Notes under the pieces: model-generated
Database searches by the model: none
What the model was told of the DNA's origin: nothing
What the model saw: only the letters and a program-made list of their open reading frames with translations
Shown: in pieces, positions 49,005-56,717 of the stretch
How the letters are laid out: every line of letters starts with the position of its first letter
Numbering within the stretch: position 1 is the first letter of the stretch
Program-made: the position numbers and the translations under genes
From: an uncultured Methanolobus sp.
GTDB taxonomy: Archaea; Halobacteriota; Methanosarcinia; Methanosarcinales; Methanosarcinaceae
NCBI RefSeq assembly: GCF_963667555.1
Contig: NZ_OY763421.1
Location: forward strand, 3,117,562-3,181,561
DNA: 64,000 bases
Direction of reading: 5' to 3'

Positions 49005-50201
49005 ATGGTTAACAAAAATAAATTGTACAAGCTATCGGCAGATATGCTTTTGATATCTCTCTTATGTATAGTCACTATCTCTATGGTTGGGATGGTAAGT
49101 GCAAATGGTGTTATTGCAGAACCTACAGTCACTAAGACAACATCACCAACAAGTATCAATGTTGCAGGTAGTGGTAGCAATGAAATTACAACTGTAACTA
49201 TAGAGGTAACAGGTGCAGGTAGCGCTACTGAAACATCTGTCCCTATGGATGTTGTATTTGCAATAGACAGTTCAGGAAGTATGAGCACAAATGATCCGAC
49301 TGGTCTTCGAAAAAGTGCAGCAAAGTCTTTTATTGACAAAATGGATTCAAGCAAAGATCAGGTTGGTGTAGTTAGTTGGGATAGTAATGTAGATTTCGCC
49401 AAGGGATTGAGTGATAATTTCACATTCGTTAAGTCATGGGTAGACAAAGTTGATAGTTCGGGAAGCACAAATCTCAATGTTGGTCTGCAAGCATCGACCA
49501 CCATGTTAAATGCAAACACAAGGGTAGGTCCATCTGCAAAAGTTATTGTTTTCCTTAGTGATGGTGATGGAACTTATTCTAATTCAACTGCAGACGCCGC
49601 AGCATCTGCAGGATATACCATTTATAGTATAGGGCTTAAAATAACAGAAGGCTCCTCACCAGAATCAAAGTTAAAGGCTATGGCTGCCAGAACAGGTGGA
49701 AAATACTATTCAGCTCCAACTGCAGAAAATCTTAATGATATTTATCAGGACATATACTCCGCGGTCGCTACTTCTACTATTCCTTACAATGTAGATGTTG
49801 TTGAGATCACCCAGGAATATATTATTGATGAAGGATCATTCAATATTAATCCAGACAGCATAACTACAGATGCTAGTGGACAAACAGTCATTACATGGCT
49901 CGATATTGGTGCGATCAATGATGGTAATTCTGATATGTCTGCTGATGAAGTAGTCACTTTAACCTTTGAAGCAAAGTGTAACCAGATTGGAACCAACTTG
50001 CCTGTAGATGTTGTTCCTGATGCAGTAGTTAATTATGAGGACAGTGAAGGAAATGATGCAGGGTCTGTAGAGATTCCACAGGCATACATTACTGTCGGTG
50101 AAAATATTCCTCCAAATGAGGAAATCCCTGAATTCCCAACTGTAGCAATTCCAATGATTGCAATTATTGGATTGGCATTTATATTCAGAAGAAGGGAATA
50201 A
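49005..50201 (+). CDS. VWA-domain surface protein with PEF-CTERM signal
   Basis: 398 residues. Signal peptide (about 1-36), a von Willebrand A domain with intact MIDAS motif DSSGSMS (about 89-95), then a DUF11-like beta domain (about 255-365), and the C-terminal sorting signal PEFPTVAIPMIAIIGLAFIF followed by RRR (about 374-397). That signal is the PEF-CTERM type processed by an archaeosortase, so the protein should be cut and anchored on the cell surface. Ligand unknown. Preceded by a 246-base AT-rich promoter region. Confidence 0.9.
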   Translation: MVNKNKLYKLSADMLLISLLCIVTISMVGMVSANGVIAEPTVTKTTSPTSINVAGSGSNEITTVTIEVTGAGSATETSVPMDVVFAIDSSGSMSTNDPTGLRKSAAKSFIDKMDSSKDQVGVVSWDSNVDFAKGLSDNFTFVKSWVDKVDSSGSTNLNVGLQASTTMLNANTRVGPSAKVIVFLSDGDGTYSNSTADAAASAGYTIYSIGLKITEGSSPESKLKAMAARTGGKYYSAPTAENLNDIYQDIYSAVATSTIPYNVDVVEITQEYIIDEGSFNINPDSITTDASGQTVITWLDIGAINDGNSDMSADEVVTLTFEAKCNQIGTNLPVDVVPDAVVNYEDSEGNDAGSVEIPQAYITVGENIPPNEEIPEFPTVAIPMIAIIGLAFIFRRRE

Positions 50202-50511: not shown

Positions 50512-51753
50512 CTGAAACTAAAGTCCTTAGCTTCTGATTTTCTTGTTGATGAGATCTATTCTCCAGACATTTTCGCCGATGAAGGCGAATGGCGTGTGTA
50601 TCTTCTTACAAAGCAAAAATGCAATACAATGGATGCTTTGAGGTTATTGGCAAGGAACAACTCTCTGCCTCTTGACTGTTTCTCTTCTGCCGGCCTTAAG
50701 GACCGGCAGGCTGTAACCACTCAGCTTATTGCAGTCAAAGGAAAGAATCTGACTCCCATCATGCAGGATAGTAAGGAAGCTGTCAGGTCTGGTTTACACA
50801 TTCAATATATGGGGCGTATGGATCACCCATTATCCGGAAAGGATGTGATAGGGAACCGTTTTACGATCACAGTAAGAAAGGTTCCATTCTATCAGGCAAC
50901 TGCGTTTGAGGATGAATGCGTAAAAGTTTCCAGAACAGGTATGATAAACTATTTTGATTCTCAGAGATTTGGTTGTCTTCGTAATGGCGAAGGATTTTCC
51001 ATGCGCTACATTCTTCGGGGTGAGCACGAAAAAGCTTTCAGGATGATAGTTTGCTCGCTGCAGGGTGAAGGAGAACATGATAGTCATGTCAGGGGAATGA
51101 TCCGGGATAACTGGGGAAACTGGCAGTATCTTTCAAAGGCGCTTCACAGGCACAATTATAGAAGGTGTTTTTCCCATCTTGCAAAACACCCGTATGATTT
51201 CAAGGGAGCATTGGGACTGCTTCCTGAATTCGAAAGAACTCTCCCTCTGTTTGCATATCAGAGCTATTTGTGGAATTCTGCAGTTGTGAATTTCCTGAAA
51301 AAAGCTGTTCCTTCGGATTCATTTTTCCATGTGGATTATGTGGCAGGAAAACTGTTGTTATTTGACGGCAGTTCCGCATTGCTGGCAGAGCAATTCAAAG
51401 ATATGAAATTTCCCTTGATAGGTAATACTCTGGATAGTATCTCAGATCCTGCTCACAGGGAGGCTTATGTGGAGGTTCTGGATGCTGAGGATATTTCCTT
51501 ATCTCAGTTAAAGGTTAAGACGCATGGTTTTTACCTTAAGGAAGAACAACGTCCATTGGTCGTGTTTCCTGAAAATGTATCTGTGCTGGAAATATGTTCG
51601 GATGAACTGGTAAAGTGCAATGGTATGATGAAAGTGACTGTTTCTTTCGATCTTCCTCGCGGATCGTATGCTACTCTTGTGATGAGGTGCATATTGGAAG
51701 GTGTTGCTACGTCGCAGTTGGAAATGCGAGTTGTCTGCAAAGAAAATTCATAG
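50512..51753 (+). CDS. truD: tRNA pseudouridine(13) synthase TruD family
   Basis: 413 residues from a CTG start. The N-terminal LKLKSLASDFLVDEI matches the conserved P-E-D-F-x-V-x-E-x segment, the catalytic Asp sits in AGLKDRQAVTTQ, and NYFDSQRFG, FAYQSYLWN and LPRGSYATLVMR are all present. Starting at GTG 50596, the first standard start in this frame, would remove the DFLVDEI segment, so CTG 50512 behind GGTGGTGA is preferred. TruD modifies U13 of tRNAs. It is shorter than many archaeal TruD proteins at the N-terminus. Confidence 0.85.
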   Translation: MKLKSLASDFLVDEIYSPDIFADEGEWRVYLLTKQKCNTMDALRLLARNNSLPLDCFSSAGLKDRQAVTTQLIAVKGKNLTPIMQDSKEAVRSGLHIQYMGRMDHPLSGKDVIGNRFTITVRKVPFYQATAFEDECVKVSRTGMINYFDSQRFGCLRNGEGFSMRYILRGEHEKAFRMIVCSLQGEGEHDSHVRGMIRDNWGNWQYLSKALHRHNYRRCFSHLAKHPYDFKGALGLLPEFERTLPLFAYQSYLWNSAVVNFLKKAVPSDSFFHVDYVAGKLLLFDGSSALLAEQFKDMKFPLIGNTLDSISDPAHREAYVEVLDAEDISLSQLKVKTHGFYLKEEQRPLVVFPENVSVLEICSDELVKCNGMMKVTVSFDLPRGSYATLVMRCILEGVATSQLEMRVVCKENS

Positions 51754-51806: not shown

Positions 51807-51939
51807 GATGGCAGATGGTTTTCAATGTGTGCAGACTTACCCAGGTATCTTTTTTATATTTACGTTGTTATTTTTAGCAAAGTCTTTAAATTATATCGCC
51901 TTATATTATATTGCACCATAAATTTTGGAGGGTAAAACT

Positions 51940-52551
51940 ATGGTATCAGTTGGTCAAAAACTATTAGATGTCCCATTCGGGGACATGATAAAAGAAATGG
52001 CTTTTGCCATTGCCGAGGGTCAGACAGCACTTGATATGAACTCTATCAATGTTGCACAGGCTCTTGCAGAGACAGAACTACAGGCTGGAAGTGTAATTCT
52101 CTACATAGAAGAAACTGTAGACGAGGATGGTAACGTTACTGCAAGTAATGTAGTTACCAACGACAAACCAATGTCTTTATTGACATACGGTCTTGAACCT
52201 CGTTTCTACGAATTCACTGAGTCTATCATTGAGGTCAAAATGACAATCTCAATGAAGAGAGAATACTCAACTGAAAAGAAATATGGCAGAGAATTTAAAT
52301 TTACCAACGAGTCCAAGATCAAGGGAAGCTACCAGTCTGGTGGACTTGCAGGTCTTCTCTTTGGTAAAGCTAAGACGAGTTTTGAGAACACTACAAATGT
52401 TGCATACACATCTACTTATGATGCAACATACAAGTCAAAGTACACCTTCAGCGAAGAAGGTACAAGCCTTCTGAGGACCACTTTAAAGCCAGTGCCTGCA
52501 CCTGAGAGAGCTGTTCCGACCGTAAGGGTTAAAGAGAGCTCTTCAGAGTAA
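51940..52551 (+). CDS. Operon protein 1: DUF2589-like, unknown function
   Basis: 203 residues, no signal peptide. Two parts: an N-terminal amphipathic helix region (PFGDMIKEMAFAIAEGQTALDMNSI, given in part; about 9-37), and a beta-rich part with IIEVKMTISMKREY (about 102-115) and a Gly-rich GGLAGLLFGKAK insertion. It resembles the DUF2589 architecture (tentative). The ATG at 51940 follows GGAGGG. A TATA-like TTATATTATATT stands near 51901. First gene of a four-gene operon; paralog of the second. Confidence 0.75.
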   Translation: MVSVGQKLLDVPFGDMIKEMAFAIAEGQTALDMNSINVAQALAETELQAGSVILYIEETVDEDGNVTASNVVTNDKPMSLLTYGLEPRFYEFTESIIEVKMTISMKREYSTEKKYGREFKFTNESKIKGSYQSGGLAGLLFGKAKTSFENTTNVAYTSTYDATYKSKYTFSEEGTSLLRTTLKPVPAPERAVPTVRVKESSSE

Positions 52552-52623
52552 GGTGAATATTTGATATCAATGCAGAGTTCCTGCATTGGTAATCTTTTTT
52601 CAAAATAATCAGGAGGTATTGTA

Positions 52624-53031
52624 TTGCCATCCATTAGTAGTGAAAATATCGAAGAGGTCCTTGTAAGTCCGCTTTCAACGATTCTTGGTGAAATGGGTAG
52701 ATCAATTGCACAGACCCAGAGGGCACTTGATCGTAATTCGATTGATACTCAGATAGAGCTTTCAAGTGATGAAGTACTCAAAGAGTATAATCTGGAAGCT
52801 ACATGGTATCATATTCCGGAAGTGGATATCGAACTTAAAATGACCCTTTCCATCTCATACGAGGAAGAAAAGGATTCCAAGGGCCGTGTTCGCGGATACA
52901 AACGTATTCTGAATGCAGCACCTTTGAATGCTTCTTATAAATCAATTAATTCCTATGATGTTGAAGGTTCAAGTGTTCTGAAGGCTAAGATCGTATCAGT
53001 ACCGCCATCTTATCGTGTAACGGAAGAATGA
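52624..53031 (+). CDS. Operon protein 2: shorter DUF2589-like paralog
   Basis: 135 residues from a TTG start seven bases after AGGAGGT. Shares with the previous protein PLSTILGEMGRSIAQTQRALDRNSI (residues 14-38, in part) and the PEVDIELKMTLSISYE strand pair (about 74-89), and ends SYDVEGSSVLKAKIVSVP like the first protein's TFSEEGTSLLRTTLKPVP. It lacks the Gly-rich insertion. Unknown function; the pair could form a hetero-oligomer (inference). Confidence 0.75.
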   Translation: MPSISSENIEEVLVSPLSTILGEMGRSIAQTQRALDRNSIDTQIELSSDEVLKEYNLEATWYHIPEVDIELKMTLSISYEEEKDSKGRVRGYKRILNAAPLNASYKSINSYDVEGSSVLKAKIVSVPPSYRVTEE

Positions 53032-53047
53032 GGGTAGGAGGGGTGTA

Positions 53048-54118
53048 ATGGCTGATATTACTGAACTACGAAAAAGTCTTGACAGTTTGAACAAGGCAAC
53101 TACAGCAGTCGCTAAAAAGCAGAGTTATGTACTTGCTGAAAGAAATATTGCTGCAATTGAGTCTGAATTTGATACGATCAACAAAGAGCTCGTCTCAAAA
53201 ACAGATGCAATTGAAAAACTCCGGAAAGAGAATCTTGCACTTAAACAGGATTACGATATTCTTGATAGTCGTGTGAAAGATATCCTCAATGAGAAACTGG
53301 AGATAGAGAAAAAACTGGAACTGTTATCTCGTACCAGGCCAGAGCTTTCATCCATAAATCTGGTAAAAGCATTCAGTGATTCTCTAGAGAGTATGGATTC
53401 CTCTCTTAAAAGCAGTTCTTCAAGGGTGAATTATAGCATTAGTTCAATGAACATTAAGCTTAAGACGAATATTGCTATGAATGGCAATGATCTCTGTTTC
53501 CAGTTACCTAAAGCGGATGACGTAATTCCTGCAAGTAATTTGAGTGAGGTTGAATTCACTATTAATTCATCGTCGAAGGCTCCTGAACTTACCAGTTACG
53601 AGGATGTGCCTGATGTTGTGGGACTTGAACTTGAAACCGCACTTTCTGCGATTAAAGAAGCAGGTTTTGTACAGGGTGAGGTTGTTGAAAAGGACAGTGA
53701 ACTTGCACAGGGTACGGTACTTTCTCAGATCCCTTCCGGCAGTTCGGTTGCAAAGTCTGGCGATGCAGTGGATCTTGTAATTTCTAAGATCACGTCTGTT
53801 AAGGTTCCGGATCTGACTGGTAATACACTTGCAGCTGCTAAGAAATCACTGGCAAACATTGGTCTGTCTCTGGGTAAGGTGACTGAAGAAGTGAATTCTT
53901 TGAAAGCAGGTACGGTTATAGGTCAGTCTGTTGAAGCGGGCAGTTATGCGGATATAGGTTCTGCTATAGATCTTGTTGTTGCAAGTTCAGAAACACAGTT
54001 TGCTGCTGTCTCGGGAAAGGTTGCTTCAACTCCGATAGTTTCCACGTCGCCTGCTAAGGTAGTATCCAGTGCAGCAACCAGGGTAAGCACAACGAGGAAA
54101 ACAATTTCCAGGAAGTAA
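53048..54118 (+). CDS. Operon protein 3: coiled-coil protein with two PASTA repeats
   Basis: 356 residues with no signal peptide or membrane helix. Residues 35-95 form a long coiled coil. Residues 104-173 are a beta domain (SINLVKAFSDSLESMDSSL..VNYSISSMNIKLKTNI). PASTA repeats follow at 186-246 (VPDVVGLELETALSAIKEAGF) and 251-312 (VKVPDLTGNTLAAAKKSLANIGL), then a Ser/Thr/Lys/Arg-rich tail. PASTA modules normally sit outside bacterial cells on kinases or PBPs, so a cytoplasmic archaeal form is unusual. Starts 17 bases after gene 2; 6 bases before gene 4. Confidence 0.85.
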   Translation: MADITELRKSLDSLNKATTAVAKKQSYVLAERNIAAIESEFDTINKELVSKTDAIEKLRKENLALKQDYDILDSRVKDILNEKLEIEKKLELLSRTRPELSSINLVKAFSDSLESMDSSLKSSSSRVNYSISSMNIKLKTNIAMNGNDLCFQLPKADDVIPASNLSEVEFTINSSSKAPELTSYEDVPDVVGLELETALSAIKEAGFVQGEVVEKDSELAQGTVLSQIPSGSSVAKSGDAVDLVISKITSVKVPDLTGNTLAAAKKSLANIGLSLGKVTEEVNSLKAGTVIGQSVEAGSYADIGSAIDLVVASSETQFAAVSGKVASTPIVSTSPAKVVSSAATRVSTTRKTISRK

Positions 54119-54124
54119 TTGCCG

Positions 54125-54370
54125 ATGCCTGTTGAAACACATATCGTAAGGGTTGCAGATAATGCAACTCCTTCACAGATAGAAGGAATACTAAAAGCTC
54201 TTGTGAGTATTGGAGGCAGGGTTGACGTGATTGCAAATAAAAGTATAATTGCCACTTTCAATGGTGATTATTCTGAGGTCATCAAACGCAAACCTGGTGT
54301 CCTTCTTGTTGGTGGTGTGAATTTCAGGGGAAGGACTGTGAGAAAAGTTGTTAAACGAAGTTCACAATGA
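54125..54370 (+). CDS. Operon protein 4: small basic protein, I9/ferredoxin-like fold
   Basis: 81 residues. Pattern ATPSQIEGILKALVSIGGRVDV...SIIATFNGDYSEVIKRKPGVLLVGGV follows the beta-alpha-beta-beta-alpha-beta order of peptidase-inhibitor I9/propeptide folds, in which GG and the final pGV are typical; the relation is inferred only from pattern. Very basic C-terminus (RTVRKVVKRSSQ). The ATG at 54125 is chosen with GGAAG upstream inside the previous gene's end; TTG 54119 is an alternative. A terminator hairpin overlaps its stop. Confidence 0.75.
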   Translation: MPVETHIVRVADNATPSQIEGILKALVSIGGRVDVIANKSIIATFNGDYSEVIKRKPGVLLVGGVNFRGRTVRKVVKRSSQ

Positions 54371-54386
54371 TCAGAGTATTGTGAAC
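54360..54386 (+). terminator. Terminator of the PASTA operon
   Basis: Perfect 9-bp stem GTTCACAAT / ATTGTGAAC with a 9-base loop, starting in the last codons of the small basic protein. Confidence 0.6.
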
Positions 54387-54471
54387 TTGCGTTGTTTATT
54401 CAAGGTTCCTATGCCTATATATTATACTGCATGGATTCGTTCTTTAAATCGTGATGTGAGTTTCAAAAATA

Positions 54472-55572: not shown

Positions 55573-55607
55573 CGGCAGCTATAAATAGCATACATTTGGC
55601 CCGTCTC

Positions 55608-56717
55608 ATGGCTAAAAAATCTATAATGTATGGAGGAGTCCACTTTGAGGATTCAATTGAAAACTATCTGAACAGAGAAAGCGCCTCAATTTGCCAATTC
55701 CTGCACTTTCTCTGCATAGAAGATATTTCAAAGCACGTGGAACGTGCTTATTATGCCAACAACAGTTGGCATTTTAAATATAGCATTTCTTCGATGATAA
55801 AGCTCTTCATTGTGATGTGTTTCAGGCAGTTATCCTATGAAAAAACTATTGCCTCATTGTCAAATGAAGAGGCAATACTACTCGCTTTTTATGGTGATAA
55901 TGACCTCGTAAAGCTTCCTTCTCCAAAGACGCTACATAACTTTGTAAAATATAGGCTGGGTGATGAAGGAATCAACGAAATAATGATGTTAGTTGGAGAA
56001 AGAATCCTTAATCTTACTCAAATAAAAGAAGCTAAGATCGATTCAACTCCACTTGAAGCATCAAGATATGATAAGCATGCTGATTACAATCCACATTATG
56101 GATGTAAGATGGACAAAGCCCATATTACAATGATAGGAACTTATCCAGTGTTCATGACACATACAAATGGCAAAGCAGGAGATACTCATGAACTCATCAA
56201 ACACATTCAAGCATTGAAGAAAATGAATGCTGATATTGACATGTATTCTGCAGATACGGGTTATAAAGCATTCAAGAATCATGCAGATATCTGGTATCAT
56301 TTGAATGCAAGGCCAGTTATTGCATATCCAAAAAATGCTGTGATCAGCAAAGAGGGTGAAATGGACAGAATCAATCATTGGGTGAATAAAATGTGGTTTC
56401 TAGGTGGGAATATACTTGCAAGCACTGAAGAAAAACTAAAATTCCTATATGAGATTGGAATGTCTAAACAGGTTGGAATGAACTTACGAAATCAAAATAT
56501 GAGGGATCAATCGTTCTATGAGCTATACAAGAAAAGAGGAGAATGCGAATCAAAGCACGGACACATTAAGGATGTAGTCAAGTTTGATATAAGAAGAATC
56601 AGAGTAGAGAGTAGAAAGCTCTACTCTCTACTGAATTTTGTAGCGTATCAGTTGCTTGTACTTACAGAAATACAAAATGGATTTGAGAAAAGAAATTCAT
56701 TTGGAAGCTTTTATTGA
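55608..56717 (+). CDS. DDE transposase
   Basis: 369 residues. Acidic catalytic triad candidates: Asp in AKIDSTPLEA (about 146), Asp in YSADTGY (about 210) and Glu in YKKRGECESKHGHIK (about 313), the last in the Y-x-x-R-x-x-x-E spacing of IS4/IS5/IS1182-type enzymes. The N-terminal region with FRQLSYEKTIASLSNEEAI is a helical DNA-binding part. Appears full length and intact. The start at ATG 55608 is preferred over TTG 55596. Exact IS family not assigned. Confidence 0.88.
   Translation: MAKKSIMYGGVHFEDSIENYLNRESASICQFLHFLCIEDISKHVERAYYANNSWHFKYSISSMIKLFIVMCFRQLSYEKTIASLSNEEAILLAFYGDNDLVKLPSPKTLHNFVKYRLGDEGINEIMMLVGERILNLTQIKEAKIDSTPLEASRYDKHADYNPHYGCKMDKAHITMIGTYPVFMTHTNGKAGDTHELIKHIQALKKMNADIDMYSADTGYKAFKNHADIWYHLNARPVIAYPKNAVISKEGEMDRINHWVNKMWFLGGNILASTEEKLKFLYEIGMSKQVGMNLRNQNMRDQSFYELYKKRGECESKHGHIKDVVKFDIRRIRVESRKLYSLLNFVAYQLLVLTEIQNGFEKRNSFGSFY

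What the first reader, a model, noticed from the sequence alone, without database searches (positions are those of the whole stretch)
51940..54370. Uncharacterised four-gene operon: two DUF2589-like paralogs, a cytoplasmic PASTA coiled-coil protein and a small basic protein
Seen: four closely spaced genes with strong ribosome binding sites, one upstream TATA-like region and one terminator hairpin overlapping the last stop. Genes 1 and 2 are paralogs of unequal length sharing an amphipathic helix (PL/F..I..E....IA..Q.ALD.NSI) and a LKMT-I-S strand. Gene 3 joins a coiled coil, a beta domain and two PASTA repeats but has no signal peptide or TM. Gene 4 resembles a small I9-like fold. Known: PASTA repeats are typically extracellular sensors on bacterial kinases and PBPs. 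Inference: the proteins form a cytoplasmic assembly of unknown purpose, perhaps a scaffold, envelope-associated or defence system.
Basis: partly seen in the sequence, partly recalled or inferred. Interest (0 to 1): 0.8.

Follow-up and report, generated by a model that had tools for sequence, protein, structure and literature searches.

The report
Undescribed four-gene archaeal protein-assembly cassette
Methane-making archaea, and distant relatives including one bacterium, share a block of genes for proteins with no signal peptide or membrane anchor and no recognisable enzyme, which probably build a scaffold inside the cell; its job is unknown and I found no description of it.

Summary
Four tightly packed genes at 51940-54370 encode two paralogs (g1, g2), a coiled-coil/PASTA protein (g3) and a small basic protein (g4). 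The order g1-g2-g3-g4 on one strand is kept in 30 of 31 loci counted; the 31st is cut by a contig end. Flanks differ between families. In two Methanolobus genomes the block is missing between its usual neighbours.

The Pfam DUF2589 model does not ring on g1 or g2, but profile-profile comparison through deep members links g1 to DUF2589 (E 1.8e-9; 40 shuffles no lower than 0.04). g4 is I9-like (E 6.5e-6; 60 shuffles no lower than 0.07). g3 carries an alpha+beta domain resembling the third gene of DUF2589 triads and, more weakly, the adaptor domain Trypco2; two PASTA repeats follow. Other lineages have none to 12 PASTA repeats, some with a helix-hairpin-helix tail. No signal peptide, membrane segment or enzyme family was found.

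Best reading: a cytoplasmic, non-enzymatic scaffold with a g1/g2 core, g3 as variable-length recruiting arm, and g4 as assembly or regulatory partner. This is inferred from anatomy, not shown. A conflict-system adaptor role is the main rival. The g1 model was poor (pLDDT 53), so the core fold is unresolved.

The parts
51885..51896 (+). TATA-like promoter box of the operon
   Evidence: TTTAAATTATAT preceded by AGCAAAGTC; CTTT(T)AAATTATA kept in 11 of 15 Methanolobus-type loci read
51940..52551 (+). g1, 203 aa, most conserved subunit; remote DUF2589 relative
   Evidence: 32 of 60 genomes; deep g1 set to DUF2589-A set E 1.8e-9
51976..52071 (+). g1 N-terminal helix with conserved IAxxQxxLDxNS motif
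   Evidence: helix 13-44 in the low-confidence model
52207..52491 (+). g1 long beta-hairpin region (strands about 90-109 and 166-184)
   Evidence: pLDDT below 50 at 103-172; by eye the same region as DUF2589 'AKAGWGWGSVKLTASY', through L107
52624..53031 (+). g2, 135 aa, paralog of g1 (TTG start)
   Evidence: (32 of 60 genomes)
53048..54118 (+). g3, 356 aa, coiled coil + alpha/beta domain + 2 PASTA + disordered tail
53051..53329 (+). g3 coiled coil (residues 2-94)
   Evidence: AlphaFold2 helices 2-16 and 20-94, pLDDT mostly above 90 in the second
53342..53575 (+). g3 alpha+beta domain (residues 99-176), like the third gene of DUF2589 triads and, weakly, Trypco2
   Evidence: (block pLDDT 67-84)
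53597..53788 (+). PASTA 1
53795..53986 (+). PASTA 2
54125..54370 (+). g4, 81 aa, basic, I9-like
   Evidence: (hhalign to I9 E 6.5e-6; 60 column shuffles no lower than 0.072)
54358..54388 (.). inverted repeat over the last stop; possible terminator between convergent genes, not conserved

Best explanation
A four-subunit cytoplasmic scaffold with no enzyme of its own. Shown: the four genes are co-inherited as one block; g1 and g2 are paralogs; g3 has a coiled coil, an alpha+beta domain and PASTA repeats; g4 is I9-like; no export signal by sequence. Inferred: g1 and g2 pair through their conserved IAxxQxxLDxNS helices and long beta-hairpins into a repeated or heteromeric core; g3 docks on that core by its own alpha+beta domain and holds out, as a variable-length arm, its coiled coil and a PASTA or PASTA-HhH string that recruits a client; g4 binds the complex as an assembly chaperone or regulator, as I9 prodomains do for subtilases (recalled). 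The client is unknown.
For: Block inheritance: g1 and g2 in the same 32 of 60 genomes, g3 N-part in 30 of them; order kept in 30 of 31 loci counted with different neighbours between families; empty sites in L119 and L121. Conservation gradient: median identity to the window copy 89 (g1), 76 (g2) and 61 (g4), and 54 for the g3 N-part over the 30 genomes, fits a fixed core and a variable arm. g3 architecture varies: no PASTA seen by eye in L107, 12 PASTA in a second g3 of L043, HHH_5 over cut-off after PASTA in L044 and L110, and HHH_5 in the third gene of a DUF2589 cluster, L087. The g3 model is confident for helix 20-94, moderate for the alpha+beta and PASTA domains. No strongly hydrophobic segment; no enzyme family over cut-off among the four.
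Against: No direct evidence of any interaction or assembly. The g1 model is poor (pLDDT 52.9, pTM 0.31), so the proposed core is not seen; pTM of g3 is only 0.32. DUF2589 and Trypco2 are themselves of unproven function. Patchy presence (16 of 27 genomes of the genus) also fits defence or accessory functions. In L099, L103 and L110 the g4 place holds barely alignable small proteins (alone E 0.009-0.035; together 5e-4 with 40 shuffles no lower than 0.041), and no g4 was noticed in L107 or L108, which weakens the idea of one fixed g4 role.
Confidence: 0.45

Rival explanations
1. An adaptor set of a biological-conflict (defence or cell-death) system: the beta domains are Trypco2-like adaptors that couple a sensor to a peptidase effector encoded elsewhere, with g4 as the matching I9-like inhibitor or antidote.
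For: g3 beta domain vs two archaeal Trypco2 proteins: E 1e-3 (lowest of 40 column shuffles 0.051); deep g3 set 1e-4, not shuffled. Trypco2 is the Pfam family matched by most members of a mixed set (4 of 43, best E 0.011; the one seen by name is a g1 of L110). Trypco2 was named for neighbouring trypsin-like peptidases in conflict systems (PMC7159879, one passage read) and is called an adapter in PMC10907252 (passages read). A Trypco2/Pepco protein sits beside a subtilase-TPR protein in a Methanosarcina-sized genome. g4 is I9-like. Presence is patchy. In G056 an S8 peptidase gene lies about 7 kb from the operon on the same contig.
Against: Trypco2 cut-off never reached; only two Trypco2 sequences compared, and g1 vs Trypco2 is no better than shuffles (1 of 40 as good). 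No peptidase directly beside the operon was noticed, but most neighbours were not run against family libraries. S8 peptidases are in 56 of 60 genomes with or without the operon, and G031 has the operon with no S8 match. PADLOC gives nothing for g1, g2, g4.
Confidence: 0.25
2. A sensor of envelope polymers, as PASTA kinases and penicillin-binding proteins are.
For: PASTA repeats are clear; the 25 Foldseek hits of g3 with E up to 0.001 are PknB, PrkC, StkP, PBP1 and PBP2x chains, PASTA proteins (for PBP2x recalled).
Against: No kinase or transpeptidase domain (NCBIfam PknB_PASTA_kin 75.7 bits against a cut-off of 450, residues 184-317 only). No membrane or signal-like segment in any of the four. 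These archaea lack peptidoglycan (recalled).
Confidence: 0.05
3. Remnant of a virus, plasmid or other mobile element (structural proteins of a particle).
For: Gain or loss as a block; the one bacterial copy found lies on a replicon labelled plasmid (L099).
Against: No relative of g1 in 50,697 phage records; none of g1 or g2 confirmed in viral contigs; 1 of 72,556 plasmid records. A true DUF2589 gene does occur in one 4-kb unannotated phage record.
Confidence: 0.08
4. A metabolic or storage accessory assembly (organising an enzyme or granule), tied to growth substrate.
For: [quoted passage not shown]
Against: That paper concerns DUF2589-related genes, only remotely related to g1; neighbours of the operon change between families.
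Confidence: 0.17

Closest known systems
DUF2589 (PF11655) gene pairs and triads of archaea and bacteria
   Same: Adjacent paralogs (two matches in 15 of 20 ringing genomes), followed in 7 of the 15 fetched loci by a third short protein that I could call; hhalign of deep g1 set to DUF2589-A set 96.3%, E 1.8e-9 over 174 columns (1.8e-8 without the bacterial row)
   Different: Pfam DUF2589 does not ring on g1, g2 or the deep members scanned; no PASTA or g4-like gene was noticed in the DUF2589 clusters read; no genome is in both lists of 294, where about 1.6 would be expected by chance
Trypco2 (PF19631), trypsin-co-occurring domain 2
   Same: Helix followed by a VxLEx strand and a final strand ending in a proline, like the g3 domain
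   Different: Cut-off never reached; no peptidase noticed directly beside the operon
PASTA domain (PF03793) kinases and PBPs
   Same: Two PASTA repeats well over cut-off in g3
   Different: No kinase, transpeptidase or membrane segment
Inhibitor_I9 (PF05922), subtilase prodomain family
   Same: Profile match over 56-58 columns, E 6.5e-6
   Different: g4 stands alone, is very basic, and Pfam I9 itself does not ring on it
DUF4332 / HHH_5
   Same: C-terminal part of g3 in L044 and L110 (HHH_5 over cut-off in both; DUF4332 over cut-off in L044 only), and fused to a g2-like domain and PASTA in L056
   Different: Absent from the window copy

Membership tests
DUF2589 (PF11655) | Score over the Pfam cut-off of 23 bits | tested here: not met
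   0 families for g1, g2 at E up to 1; no DUF2589 among hits of 10 deep or bacterial proteins or of 24 g2 members; no match in G000
DUF2589 (PF11655) | Remote homology over the whole domain | tested here: met
   Deep g1 set vs DUF2589-A set E 1.8e-9, 174 columns; 40 column shuffles no lower than 0.04. The Methanolobus-type g1 set alone gives only E 0.0014, and g2 is not significant against A
PASTA (PF03793) | Score over cut-off, two repeats | tested here: met
   81.9 bits vs 23.2, two stretches
PASTA kinase / PD-T4-6 defence kinase | Ser/Thr kinase domain | tested here: not met
   Best stretches of PknB_PASTA_kin and PD-T4-6 matches lie within residues 177-329; no kinase family rings
Trypco2 (PF19631) | Score over cut-off of 24.2 bits | tested here: not met
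   4 of 43 members match weakly, best E 0.011, 16.3 bits
Trypco2 (PF19631) | Neighbouring peptidase gene | tested here: inconclusive
   None noticed directly beside the operon, one S8 gene about 7 kb away in G056; most neighbours were not run against family libraries
Inhibitor_I9 (PF05922) | Pfam score over cut-off | tested here: not met
   g4: 0 families
Inhibitor_I9 (PF05922) | Profile-profile similarity over the fold | tested here: met
   84.8%, E 6.5e-6; 60 shuffles no lower than 0.072
Inhibitor_I9 (PF05922) | Binds and inhibits a subtilase | not testable with these tools
   G031 has the operon and no S8 match, which argues against an obligate S8 partner

The most novel reading that the evidence does not exclude
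A hitherto undescribed class of cytoplasmic prokaryotic assembly, spread over archaea and at least one bacterium, built from paralogous copies of one alpha+beta module that also underlies DUF2589 and Trypco2. g1/g2 (and a third copy g1b in deep lineages) form the core, a third-gene protein with length-variable coiled-coil/PASTA/HhH arms recruits clients, and an I9-like protein controls assembly. DUF2589 clusters would be a second branch of the same class.
Probability: 0.35. Interest if true: 0.85.

Novelty: new variant of a known kind. Interest (0 to 1): 0.6.

Why it matters
It joins several domains of unknown function (DUF2589, DUF4332, Trypco2-like) and stray PASTA and I9 domains into one co-inherited gene set, so that work on one would help to explain the others. 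It also puts PASTA repeats, known mainly as extracellular sensors, into an apparently cytoplasmic setting. Sister species without the block show that it is dispensable, which makes a deletion test feasible.

Tried and rejected
Rejected: membership of DUF2589, Trypco2 or I9 by Pfam score (not met). Pore-like amphipathic hairpin in g1: the beta hydrophobic moment does not exceed shuffles (smallest p 0.09). g4 as inhibitor of an obligate subtilase: S8 genes do not track the operon. Viral origin: no relatives of g1 or g2. PDB sequence search for g1, g2, g4: no convincing match. Foldseek on the g1 model: 0 matches at E up to 0.001, as expected for a low-confidence model.

Led nowhere: alignments A4, A5 and A8, in which g1-g2 and g3-g4 were read through their stop codons with NCBI table 6 so as to fold pairs in one job, misaligned (g2 rows onto g1, g3 rows onto g4) and were dropped; nothing fused was folded. 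The paper searches gave no description of this gene set (listings only).

Rows dropped, wrong or circular: in the order count, G035 (L056, rearranged variant), the second g3 of L043 and the pseudogene locus L057 were left out; L031-L038 were left out because their contig lengths equal those of loci already counted; in L016 g1 is cut at the contig start but was counted as present. In one search the sets A2 and C2 held wrong-strand L084 reads, removed. L052 and L053 were mis-cut and left out of the g3 beta set. In L084-L086 the ORF picker took the wrong strand, and these loci were not interpreted. The I9 set held wrong-strand reads; one search replaces it. The match of the Sphaerotilus g1 to the g1 profile was circular (that protein was in the profile); one search repeats it without. 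The g3 beta set holds 7 deep rows, so its median identity is not comparable with g1, g2 and g4; I use instead. Part of the output was cut, so L106 was read only in part and its g4 was not looked for. One search ended in a script error and was redone.
Full report
What is there. The window lies in a Methanolobus-like genome (G000; 8 of the 9 named g2 relatives are Methanolobus, the ninth a Methanosarcinaceae MAG). Four ORFs on the + strand, g1 51940-52551, g2 52624-53031, g3 53048-54118 and g4 54125-54370, are 72, 16 and 6 nt apart, each behind a Shine-Dalgarno-like motif. A TATA-like box precedes g1 and is kept in 11 of 15 Methanolobus-type loci, by my reading. The inverted repeat at the end is real but found clearly only in L002 and L004 among relatives. 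Codon position 3 changes most in each of 20 pairwise comparisons; g1 is tightly and g3 loosely constrained.

A co-inherited block. In 60 genomes (own plus relatives) g1 and g2 are found in the same 32 and the g3 N-terminal part in 30. The two without g3 are G032, which holds only decayed pieces of g1 and g2 (L057), and G035, which has a rearranged version (L056). Within the genus 16 of 27 genomes have it. In 31 loci counted (30 of the 32 genomes plus L039), 30 have g1-g2-g3-g4 in order on one strand; L013 is cut by its contig end. Neighbours differ between families. In G007 and G005 (L119, L121) the matched parts of the flanking iorB-like gene (name recalled) and galU-like gene (PF00483) lie about 111 and 65 nt apart with no operon match; in G024 only a piece of the galU-like gene is left, and in the stretch of G026 none was found.

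Spread. A g2 profile rings in 24 of 294 genomes of the phylum at E up to 0.01, the decayed copy of G032 included. Deep members were read in L103, L104, L105, L107, L108, L110 and in part L106: each has g1, g2, g3 in that order. L106 and L110 have an extra paralog g1b between g1 and g2 (E 1e-16 and 2e-20 to the g1 profile); in L103 a protein in that place matches only weakly (E 2e-4). In L104 and L109 a g4 homolog (E 8e-11 and 2e-10) comes first instead of last. No g4 was noticed in L107 or L108. A bacterial g1 lies on a 303-kb Sphaerotilus replicon (L099; tblastn E 6e-16, 35% identity over 90%). Without that protein in the profile, its g1 matches at E 4e-50 and the next gene, a g1b, at E 2e-22. 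The gene after that resembles g2 only weakly (E 0.002) and the coiled-coil gene does not reach g3, so the bacterial set is established only for g1 and g1b. No phage record holds a relative of g1, and no viral contig was confirmed.

Relationships. g1~g2: 98.4%, E 5e-15. Pfam DUF2589 does not ring on either or on the deep members scanned. DUF2589 rings in 20 of 294 genomes, with two neighbouring matches in 15 of them. Neighbourhoods of 15 were fetched; in 7 I could call a third short gene 'C' after the pair, in L087 the third gene carries HHH_5/DUF4332, in L081-L083 a DUF2589 gene is followed by two other proteins, and L084-L086 were not interpreted. The deep g1 set (9 sequences) matches the DUF2589-A set (14) over 174 columns (96.3%, E 1.8e-9); 40 column shuffles gave nothing below 0.04. 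The Methanolobus-type g1 set alone is not significant (E 0.0014). Against C: g2 alone E 0.002, deep g2 set 2e-4 in one direction and 1e-5 in the other, g3 beta region 1e-4; g3 beta region against Trypco2: E 1e-3, its deep set 1e-4 (lowest of 40 shuffles 0.024 for deep g2/C, 0.041 for g3/C, 0.051 for g3/Trypco2). These links are suggestive, not proof: they rest on about 50-75 columns, and only two Trypco2 sequences were at hand. g1 against Trypco2 is no better than shuffles (1 of 40 as good), and g3 against g1 or DUF2589-A/B gives nothing, so a common origin of the g3 domain with g1 is not shown. g4 against I9: E 6.5e-6, 60 shuffles no lower than 0.072; g1, g2 and g3 do not match I9.

Structure. 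g3 (36-row alignment): mean pLDDT 79.9, pTM 0.32, helix 20-94, helix 102-122, four strands 127-176 (block pLDDT 67-82), two PASTA domains, disordered tail from 317. The 25 PDB matches with E up to 0.001 are PASTA-bearing kinases and penicillin-binding proteins. g1 (43 rows): pLDDT 52.9, pTM 0.31, a helix 13-44 and long strands; residues 103-172 are below 50, and no PDB match reached E 0.001. This fits a protein that folds only with partners, or simply too thin an alignment.

How it probably works. The block encodes, as far as libraries tell, only binding domains: no enzyme family over cut-off and no membrane segment. g1 is the most conserved and g3 the most variable, from no PASTA by eye (L107) to twelve in a second, 1324-aa g3 of L043. 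The likeliest reading is a scaffold with a g1/g2 core and a g3 arm that recruits a client, g4 serving assembly or control. Steps shown: co-inheritance, paralogy of g1 and g2, domain content, lack of export signals in sequence. Steps inferred: complex formation, core and arm roles, client, g4 role.

Known or not. The library searched holds one paper with the word DUF2589, a remark that AF0414-AF0417 were up-regulated with lactate (PMC3949148, passage read), and one with DUF4332, seen as a listing and unrelated by title. Searches for PASTA with archaea, methanogen and related terms (listings only) showed nothing on this gene set. I therefore found no description, within that open-access library. 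I rate it a new variant of a known kind because DUF2589 clusters exist as an unnamed family; neither has a described function that I found.

Changes made on checking: the circular bacterial match was replaced, the empty-site distances and the conservation figure for g3 were corrected, and the S8 gene near the operon of G056 was added to the rival's evidence.

Noticed in passing
window 55596-56717 (+): A 373-aa transposase-like ORF sits between the galU-like gene and the ribosomal protein L3-like gene (names recalled); in L058, which keeps the operon, these two genes are closer together.
   Followed up: no
window 49005-50201 (+): vWA-domain protein with an N-terminal hydrophobic segment and a C-terminal hydrophobic stretch followed by RRRE; looks secreted or surface-anchored. 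Kept next to the operon in L041.
   Followed up: partly
window 50596-51753 (+): The match of the TruD-like ORF begins at profile position 48 of PF01142, so the called start may miss an N-terminal part or the gene may be truncated.
   Followed up: no
L124 (G000:C1:2717780): Only other PASTA-like stretch found in the genome, below cut-off, in a 488-aa protein resembling methanogenesis marker protein 3 (recalled); a 514-aa protein that looks similar lies beside the operon in L051.
   Followed up: partly
L043 10550-14524 (-): Second g3-like protein of 1324 aa with 12 PASTA repeats directly upstream of the operon.
   Followed up: partly
L056 8097-13486 (+): Rearranged version: DUF4332 + g2-like + PASTA fused in one 395-aa protein, separate g3 N-part, two g1 paralogs, then a low-complexity protein and a TPR protein.
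   Followed up: partly
L057 145-700: Decayed pieces of g1 and g2, the latter with a stop inside: a dying copy of the block.
   Followed up: partly
L115 1213-3184 (-): Protein with Trypco2 and, below cut-off, Pepco similarity next to a subtilase-TPR protein in a 5.8-Mb genome of the same family.
   Followed up: partly
L100 8951-9214 and L101 8926-9201: Small 87-91 aa protein with a shared NPNNP motif follows bacterial DUF2589 pairs; no Pfam family.
   Followed up: partly
L045 15046-18000 (-) (G056:C89): An S8 peptidase gene lies about 7 kb from the operon on the same contig.
   Followed up: no
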